Assembly: GCA_013396915.1 (NCBI GenBank)
Contig: VWZL01002577.1
Coordinates: 1-64,000, forward strand
Direction of reading: 5' to 3'
DNA length: 64,000 nt
Source: Stercorarius parasiticus
Taxonomy: Eukaryota; Chordata; Aves; Charadriiformes; Stercorariidae
The translations under genes were made by a program, and so were the position numbers. The notes beneath the pieces were generated by a model. That model saw only the letters and a list, made by a program, of their open reading frames with translations, did not search any database and had not been told where the DNA came from. Below, one piece after another: positions 13,274 to 14,823 of this stretch. The number at the start of each line of letters is the position of its first letter. Within the stretch, counting starts at the first letter, position 1.

Positions 13274-13392
13274 GTTTACACCATATGAATGGTATAACCC
13301 CCACCCGTGCAACCCAGACTCAGATGTGGTGGAAAACAATTTTACTTTACTAAATAGTTTCTGGTTTGGAGTTGGAGCTCTCATGCAGCAAG
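13274..13392 (+). CDS. GRIK1: GRIK1 exon: pore loop with Q/R editing site
   Basis: 119 nt; the first base completes the Arg codon from the previous exon and the last base starts a Gly codon. It encodes FTPYEWYNPHPCNPDSDVVE and then NNFTLLNSFWFGVGALMQQ, the M1-M2 linker and the re-entrant pore loop M2. Asn-Asn-Phe-Thr supplies a possible sequon. The codon for the first Gln of MQQ is CAG at 13386-13388. This is the Q/R site, where A-to-I editing changes Gln to Arg and lowers calcium permeability and conductance. The exon ends caag|gtacac, and the end of the exon together with its 5' splice site pairs with an intronic complement at 14791-14823. Confidence 0.97.
13386..13388 (+). other. GRIK1: Q/R RNA-editing codon (CAG)
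   Basis: This Gln codon is aligned with the pore-lining Q/R site of GluA2, GluK1 and GluK2. The genome encodes Gln, and the central A at 13387 is the expected ADAR2 target. In the predicted duplex it lies in a small internal loop between two short perfect stems, 13381-13385 with 14801-14805 and 13389-13394 with 14791-14796. Confidence 0.85.
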
Positions 13393-13396
13393 GTAC

Positions 13397-13497
13397 ACCG
13401 GTTACACTTCGTTATCGCACACGTCCCACAGTCTGCTCAAGGGCTTCTGTGCTGGTAAACTCCACCCTCTGTAAATACAGCATATACTGTAAAACCT
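13397..13497 (+). promoter_or_regulatory. GRIK1: 5' arm of distal editing duplex
   Basis: Intronic bases just after the 5' splice site extend the exon duplex. 13424-13436 pairs with 14755-14767 (12 of 13), 13453-13463 with 14735-14745 (11 of 11) and 13484-13497 with 14638-14651 (14 of 14). The blocks are in the right antiparallel order and similarly spaced. Confidence 0.75.
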
Positions 13498-14637
13498 GAT
13501 CTCAGGAACTAAGCAGTAGAAGAAAGGAAGAAAACGACGTGCCACTGCCACTGGGAGCAGGCAGAGGAGGGGACCCTGTGAAACCCAGAACAGGGCGGCA
13601 GCAGGAGGCAGGAGGAGAAGCACCTGAGAGAAAGGGAAGCTGACAGGGCCACAGGGGAGTTTCTGGAGCTGAAACGTAAAATAATCACAGGAGGGATATG
13701 AAGCGTTTCATGCTAAAGTTGAGTTTATTGGTACAAGAGGTTTGGTGACAGGAAAAGGTTGGGCTCCATCCCAACAGAAGCAGTAACAGCCTTAGCTACC
13801 CTAGGAAAACTGTTTTAACTGCCAAACAAAAGAAAAAAAAGATGCTCTTTCTTCAGAAAGGTTGTTAAGTTTGTTGGCATTTGTCAAACACTTTGTTTAA
13901 AACCAAAACCAAACCCAAACTTTTTTTTTTTATGGCTTTTCTGCAGGTATGAGTCCCATCCTTCTGTAAATGCATCCAACCCTAGAAGCATTAACTTAAC
14001 CCAGTCACAAATCCCTGTTGGTGATGATTTTGGAAACAGATGACATTTTGCTCAGTTTACAAGGAAGGGCAGTGAAGCTTACTCCATGTGGGAAGTCAAA
14101 ACAGATATGTGTACTAAACACATTTGTTTATGGCGTGTATGTTCCAAGGTTTCCAGTTAAATCACTGTTCACCAAAACTGGGGTCCACTGAAAAGAATGA
14201 AAATATTTTCTGACAAACATTTCAAGTTGAATCAAAGCTGAACAAAAAAACCCCCACCCCACAACAACAACCAAAAGGGCAATTCAGAGGAAAGCCCAGC
14301 AGTACCTTGGTATTAAATTCCTAAACACTTAAGTAAGGAATATAAAACCATCTCTGCATTCATCCAGGTACAGTTTATTCTTCCCTCTTTAACAGAAATG
14401 AGTAGCAGTAAAAAAAAAAAACCAAAAACATGAGGAGGATTTTTTCCTAGATATGCTTGAGAATAAATTTTGTATTATACCTAAGATGCACTTGCTTTTA
14501 TTGGTGCACTAATGTATTGACAGGATATAGAGCTTCCTCATAGAAATTATTTTGAAGGAGGTTGGGTGAAGGAAGAGCCGTTCTGTTTCGCTTTTTTGTT
14601 TTGTTTGCCTTCCAATTTATCAGTAAAACACAGGCTG

Positions 14638-14823
14638 AGGTTTTACAGTATCAGGCAGGTGTGTGTATATAACTGTGATTGCCCTGTGTGTGAAAGTGCC
14701 CCAGGATTCTGTGTTTCGATGTACTGCCTTTTTTGGAGTTTACCATCATCCACAGCAAACTGTGGGATGCAGTGTCTGCTCGTTACCACTACCTTGGGTA
14801 CATGACAGTCAGCCCCAACCAGA
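14638..14823 (+). promoter_or_regulatory. GRIK1: Editing-site complementary sequence (ECS) for the Q/R site
   Basis: This stretch contains, in reverse order, complements of the exon end and the first 105 bases of the intron. The proximal part (accttg, catga, aaccaga at 14791-14796, 14801-14805 and 14817-14823) pairs with caaggt, tcatg and tctggtt at 13389-13394, 13381-13385 and 13360-13366. Three distal blocks of 14, 11 and 12-of-13 bases extend the stem. Mammalian GluK1 and GluK2 pre-mRNAs are known to need distant intronic complements for Q/R editing by ADAR2. The position, about 1.4 kb downstream, and the ordered blocks fit that role. Editing itself is inferred. Confidence 0.8.

What the first reader, a model, noticed from the sequence alone, without database searches (positions are those of the whole stretch)
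13360..14823. Readable long-range RNA duplex for GRIK1 Q/R editing
Seen: the exon end and first part of the intron (13360-13497) have ordered antiparallel complements at 14638-14823. The pairs are 13360-13366/14817-14823 (7 bp), 13381-13385/14801-14805 (5 bp), 13389-13394/14791-14796 (6 bp, covering the 5' splice site), 13424-13436/14755-14767 (12 of 13), 13453-13463/14735-14745 (11 of 11) and 13484-13497/14638-14651 (14 of 14). The edited CAG lies in a small internal loop. Known: Q/R editing of GluK1 and GluK2 pre-mRNA by ADAR2 needs a distant intronic complement. Inference: this is the avian element, about 1.4 kb downstream. The duplex also sequesters the splice donor, so editing and splicing may be coupled.
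Basis: partly seen in the sequence, partly recalled or inferred. Interest (0 to 1): 0.75.

Follow-up and report, generated by a model that had tools for sequence, protein, structure and literature searches.

The report
GRIK1 Q/R RNA-editing duplex, sauropsid copy
An intron piece about 1.4 kb downstream can pair with the end of a glutamate-receptor (GRIK1) exon, forming the kind of RNA duplex that in mammals lets an enzyme recode one amino acid of the channel pore; it looks like a good example of a known device, not a new one.

Summary
Six of six blocks are at the stated coordinates. They join into a Q/R stem (13360-13405 with 14782-14823, 33 pairs) and a downstream intronic stem (13411-13464 with 14734-14779, 38 pairs). 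The gene is GRIK1. The ordered blocks beat chance: chain score 16.8, maximum 11.2 in 400 shuffled introns. In the fold of 13340-14900 six of seven sampled helices have probability 0.99 or more; the seventh, the 14-bp block 13484-13497/14638-14651, has 0.0. The exon half is weaker: lost in some longer folds, and only marginally the best partner in the intron. Distant ECS plus adjacent stem matches published mammalian GluK2 (1885 nt; PMC5654063). Extra: the splice donor inside the duplex is the weakest of seven GRIK1 donors scored. Conservation and editing could not be tested: no vertebrate relative or RNA data was reached. Verdict: most likely the sauropsid, probably bird, orthologue of the known GRIK1 Q/R editing element; 'avian' rests on CR1-like tails found with a recalled motif.

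The parts
13274..13392 (+). GRIK1 exon encoding the pore loop, ending ...ALMQQ(G); edited exon
   Evidence: tblastn with recalled GluK1; acceptor CAG at 13271-13273, donor GT at 13393
13386..13388 (+). Q/R codon CAG; A13387 is the predicted edited base, in a 3x4 internal loop (CAG opposite 14797-14800)
   Evidence: that GRIK1 is edited Q-to-R: PMC4053846 (Q621R); that the first of the two Gln codons is the site is recalled
13360..13405 (+). 5' arm of the Q/R stem (33 pairs, 2 of them G.U), includes the 5' splice site; the cofold adds 3 pairs at 13355-13357
14782..14823 (+). editing complementary sequence (ECS), 3' arm of the Q/R stem
13393..13398 (+). 5' splice site GTACAC, lowest-scoring of seven GRIK1 donors scored; GU paired with 14791-14792
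13411..13464 (+). 5' arm of the downstream intronic stem (38 pairs, 4 of them G.U), candidate editing inducer element
14734..14779 (+). 3' arm of the downstream intronic stem
13484..13497 (+). outer 14-bp perfect block, 5' arm; formation doubtful
   Evidence: exact, forms in cofold of trimmed arms, probability 0.0 in long folds
14638..14651 (+). outer 14-bp perfect block, 3' arm; formation doubtful
13393..17587 (+). GRIK1 intron (4195 nt) that carries the ECS; next exon begins at 17588

Best explanation
This is the GRIK1 (GluK1) Q/R-site RNA-editing substrate of a sauropsid, probably a bird. In the pre-mRNA the end of the pore-loop exon and the first ~70 nt of the intron pair with a complement about 1.4 kb further down the same intron. 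The Q/R stem presents A13387 to ADAR (by analogy mainly ADAR2), which turns CAG (Gln) into CIG, read as Arg; the stronger neighbouring intronic stem holds the two arms together and probably acts as an ADAR-recruiting element. The duplex also covers a weak 5' splice site, so the intron probably persists long enough to be edited. Shown: gene, codon, complementarity beyond chance, predicted fold. Inferred: ADAR binding, actual editing, splice delay.
For: GRIK1 exons in order. Six of six blocks exact. Chain score reached by 0 of 400 shuffles. Six of seven sampled helices at 0.99 or more in 13340-14900 at 37 and 41 C. ECS windows are the best partners of the exon arm among 411 intron windows and of the intron arm among 405. 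Published GluK2 has the same plan: ECS 1885 nt downstream, flanking stems needed for efficient editing (PMC5654063); GluK1 Q/R is listed there at 62% editing with an adjacent 3' stem. [quoted passage not shown] The weakest donor of seven lies in the duplex.
Against: No cross-species alignment and no RNA data. Exon arm alone is marginal: -37.7, next distinct intron site -36.3; of 3000 random synonymous exons 358 (cofold) or 282 (duplex) pair at least as well. Exon helices drop to 0-0.02 when the fold is extended to 15200 or 15600; in 13100-15000 and 12800-15100 six of seven helices fall to about 0.85 and 0.45. Nothing beyond 15600 was folded, though the intron runs to 17587. Antisense arms fold slightly better than sense (-90.4, -85.9), so there is no strand signal. 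Total MFE is ordinary. Natural pieces with equal or lower interaction energy exist. The edited A is mostly unpaired (0.13 with U14799). The passages read of a chicken-embryo editing screen name recoding in CYFIP2, GRIA2 and COG3, and GRIK does not occur in its main text (PMC4449034).
Confidence: 0.88

Rival explanations
1. Chance complementarity in a 4.2-kb intron; the true ECS is elsewhere or absent.
For: The exon arm's energy is nearly matched near 15570 (-36.3), 16230 and 16670 (-35.7); some unshuffled window pieces give lower interaction energy; a cheap-gap alignment score was matched by 5 of 98 control queries and exceeded at 2 other places in the window; 1 of 100 shuffles exceeds the 71 pairs of the two stems.
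Against: Ordered blocks of 11-14 bp: 0 of 400 shuffles; gene, codon and distance fit a known device.
Confidence: 0.06
2. Inverted repeat of a transposon or old inverted duplication that pairs without editing function.
For: CR1-like tails occur in the window.
Against: Neither arm has another full copy in the window (blastn; only short partial hits, E 0.11 or more); the arms match only in spaced blocks; one arm is partly coding exon.
Confidence: 0.02
3. The duplex is mainly a splicing-control structure that masks a weak donor; editing is secondary or lost in this lineage.
For: Donor GTACAC scores 0.34, the six other donors 3.35-8.63 (recalled frequencies), and its GU is paired at about 0.9 in the fold of 13275-15600.
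Against: The duplex extends well into the exon and surrounds the known edited codon; mammals edit this site.
Confidence: 0.04

Closest known systems
GRIK1 (GluR5/GluK1) Q/R editing element of mammals (Herb et al. 1996, title seen in reference lists only; PMC5654063 Table 1; PMC4053846 passages)
   Same: Same gene, same codon, distant intronic sequence required, adjacent stable stem on the 3' side
GRIK2 (GluR6/GluK2) Q/R ECS and editing inducer elements (PMC5654063 section 8)
   Same: Q/R stem plus downstream stem, distant ECS in the same intron
   Different: Other gene; ECS at 1885 nt rather than about 1.4 kb; GluK2 also has an upstream stem, which was not looked for here
GRIA2 (GluA2) Q/R ECS and intronic inducer stem (PMC5654063 passages)
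   Same: Exon-intron duplex at a Q/R site with an inducer stem in the intron
   Different: Essentially complete editing; different gene family; its ECS is much nearer the exon (recalled)

Membership tests
GRIK1 Q/R editing element | GRIK1 pore-loop exon with genomic CAG at the Q/R site | tested here: met
GRIK1 Q/R editing element | Distant complement in the downstream intron, beyond chance | tested here: met
   exon arm alone only marginal
GRIK1 Q/R editing element | Stable duplex containing the edited codon in the pre-mRNA | tested here: inconclusive
   0.99 or more in 13340-14900, 0-0.02 for the two exon helices sampled in 13275-15200 and 13340-15600
GRIK1 Q/R editing element | Sequence or compensatory conservation of the ECS in related species | not testable with these tools
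   No relative found in the viral and prokaryote collections; the genome search not answered
GRIK1 Q/R editing element | A-to-I change at the site in brain RNA, ADAR dependent | not testable with these tools
   No RNA data
Editing inducer element (EIE) | Stable stem adjacent to the edited stem, separated by an internal loop | tested here: met
   38-pair downstream stem, -49.7 kcal/mol as a local duplex; the loop between the stems is small (13406-13410 with 14780-14781), smaller than the 'larger internal loops' described for GluK2
Editing inducer element (EIE) | Removal lowers editing at the site | not testable with these tools
   needs a reporter assay

The most novel reading that the evidence does not exclude
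In this lineage the GRIK1 element works as an edit-then-splice gate: an unusually weak donor is locked in the editing duplex, and ADAR action in or near the donor helix loosens it, so that mostly edited transcripts are released.
Probability: 0.08. Interest if true: 0.55.

Novelty: new member of a known kind. Interest (0 to 1): 0.3.

Why it matters
It gives exact, testable arms for the sauropsid GRIK1 Q/R substrate, which lets one ask whether the kainate-receptor editing duplex and its link to splicing predate the bird-mammal split. In itself it confirms a known mechanism.

Tried and rejected
Cheap-gap Smith-Waterman complementarity was uninformative: 5 of 98 control queries matched it and 2 other places in the window scored higher, because gaps were too cheap; replaced by the block-chain test. 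Pure duplex energy separates from shuffles but not from all natural sequence. Strand asymmetry gave no signal. The synonymous-codon test was not significant (358 of 3000 by cofold, 282 of 3000 by duplex). Rfam: no family at gathering threshold in the window. Searches for relatives by the exon at 17587-17805 and by a 20-base ECS pattern found none in the viral and prokaryote collections, as expected for a vertebrate. A local hairpin like the 73-nt mammalian GluK1 inducer was looked for in three stretches between 13440 and 13600; local folds exist (-14.4 to -43.5 kcal/mol, not compared with shuffles) but no clear 27-bp hairpin.

Papers: passages of PMC5654063 (plus its sections 8 and 9), PMC10504484, PMC4751552, PMC2831006, PMC6724681, PMC4053846, PMC8257547, PMC10019624, PMC4449034, PMC8659423 and PMC4594022. 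Herb et al. 1996 (PMC39875) and 10.1093/nar/gkw325 are not held. The listings (some capped) and the passages opened showed no report of bird GRIK1 Q/R editing; they cover open-licence papers only. [quoted passage not shown] its content was not seen, so bird GRIK1 editing may already be in print.

Full report
What was claimed and what is there. Six of six are there with the stated lengths. Cofolding 13340-13510 with 14620-14840 gives -124.6 kcal/mol and fills in the helices between the blocks. The structure is best described as two stems: a Q/R stem, 13360-13405 with 14782-14823 (33 pairs, 2 G.U), and a downstream intronic stem, 13411-13464 with 14734-14779 (38 pairs, 4 G.U); both are the same in the MFE folds of 13340-14900 at 37 and 41 C.

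Gene and codon. tblastn with recalled GluK1 and GluK2 finds exons of the ligand-binding and channel part at 6955-7158, 7760-7983, 13274-13392, 17588-17805, 22957-23182 and 28387-28637, plus the end of an earlier exon at 5739-5768 (E 0.52); limits were set by hand from splice sites. The exon at 22957 is 97% identical to recalled GluK1 and 86% to recalled GluK2. Against solved structures the exon at 6955-7158 scores 9.6e-41 for GluK1, 9.2e-35 for GluK3 and 3.8e-34 for GluK2; the exon at 17587-17805 also matches GluK1 best, narrowly (5.2e-43, GluK2 4.5e-42). The pore-loop exon reads ...NSFWFGVGALMQQ and ends at 13392; the intron runs from 13393 to 17587.

Is it more than chance? The strictest test here scores collinear ungapped blocks. 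The real chain (13422-13437, 13453-13464, 13484-13497) scores 16.8; 0 of 400 dinucleotide-shuffled introns reach it (max 11.2, median 5.4). Among 294 query places in the window, one at 13400 scores the same because its query contains the same blocks, one at 13800 scores 15.6 (a query with A and T runs), and the next is 11.6. In MFE folds of 13340-14900, 81 pairs link the first 171 nt with one distal 200-nt stretch; 0 of 100 shuffles reach 81 (top 74 and 66, median 32). Ten of the 81 join 13340-13351 to the purine microsatellite; the two stems alone hold 71, which 1 of 100 shuffles exceeds. Less favourable results: interaction energy is below all 1000 shuffles, but 2 of 1261 plus-strand window pieces, and at least 3 of 1261 minus-strand pieces not overlapping the query, are lower; total MFE is ordinary. 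The chain test is carried by the intronic stem and the 14-bp block, not by the exon.

How firm is each helix? One pair was sampled in each of seven helices. In 13340-14900 and 13275-14900 six of seven have probability 0.99-1.00, for the former also at 41 C. In 13275-15200 and 13340-15600 the intronic stem stays at 0.99 and the donor helix at 0.93 and 0.73, but the two exon helices fall to 0-0.02; in 13100-15000 six of seven are at about 0.85, in 12800-15100 at about 0.45. Nothing beyond 15600 was folded. The 14-bp perfect block has probability 0.0 in all of these and forms only when the trimmed arms are cofolded. Among 411 intron windows the ECS windows are the best partners of the exon arm, but by a small margin (-37.7, next -36.3); for the intron arm the margin is large (-49.7, next distinct site -39.4, of 405 windows). 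Of 3000 random synonymous exons 358 (cofold) or 282 (duplex) pair with the ECS at least as well. So the intronic stem is the solid part; the exon stem is plausible mainly because it is held in register by it and because the known element must lie there. Since RNA folds as it is made, the shorter fragments may be the more relevant, but that is inference.

Edited site. CAG sits in a 3x4 internal loop opposite 14797-14800; A13387 pairs with U14799 at only 0.13 in the local duplex.

Comparison with what is known. In GluK2 the ECS lies 1885 nt downstream and flanking stems are required for efficient editing: disrupting the downstream stem lowered editing in HeLa cells from 23% to 5% (PMC5654063 section 8). 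The same paper lists GluK1 Q/R at 62% editing with a conserved adjacent 3' stem of 73 nt and 27 bp at 70 nt; here the downstream stem starts 24-35 nt from A13387, so either the definition or the structure differs. [quoted passage not shown] whether GRIK1 is among them is in a table I could not open. The passages read of a whole-embryo screen in chicken name recoding in CYFIP2, GRIA2 and COG3; GRIK does not occur in its main text (PMC4449034). A 1997 paper on glutamate receptor editing in avian neurons exists (Lowe et al.; title only), so editing in birds may already be described.

Splicing. The GU of the donor lies in the 7-bp helix 13389-13395/14790-14796, probability about 0.9 in the fold of 13275-15600. 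With recalled donor frequencies, this donor (AAG|GTACAC, 0.34) is the weakest of seven GRIK1 donors in the window (others 3.35-8.63). Inhibiting splicing raised editing at hundreds of mouse sites, and in human brain regions editing of sites with an intronic ECS such as GRIK2 correlates negatively with splicing efficiency, whereas the GRIA2 Q/R site does not follow the trend (PMC6724681 passages); PMC8257547 cites the effect for GRIK1 as well. A weak, covered donor fits that theme; coupling as such is not new.

Species. Four CR1-like tails (recalled motif) at 3, 938, 24480 and 56994 point to a sauropsid; bird is likely but was not tested further. The first test (folding against shuffles) is passed on long-range pairing, though not on total energy.

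Verdict. Confirmed and most likely correctly interpreted; a new member of a known kind.

Noticed in passing
13393-13398: The donor of the edited exon, GTACAC, lacks G at +5 and is the weakest of seven GRIK1 donors scored (recalled frequencies).
   Followed up: partly
14860-14925: A purine (GA/GAAA) microsatellite lies just 3' of the ECS; in the 37 C fold of 13340-14900 part of it pairs with 13340-13351.
   Followed up: partly
39119-39259: Match to a kainate-receptor C-terminal tail (NAIMEELGISLKHQ...QRRTLRKETIA; E 0.14 to recalled GluK2), probably the GRIK1 C-terminal exon.
   Followed up: no
3, 938, 24480 (+), 56994 (-): CR1-like retrotransposon tails (recalled motif).
   Followed up: no
outside the window: chicken chr1:103511385 (PMC4751552): A T-to-C RNA/DNA difference in a GRIK1 intron was reported in chicken adipose tissue, replicates column 6; its position relative to this duplex is unknown.
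   Followed up: no
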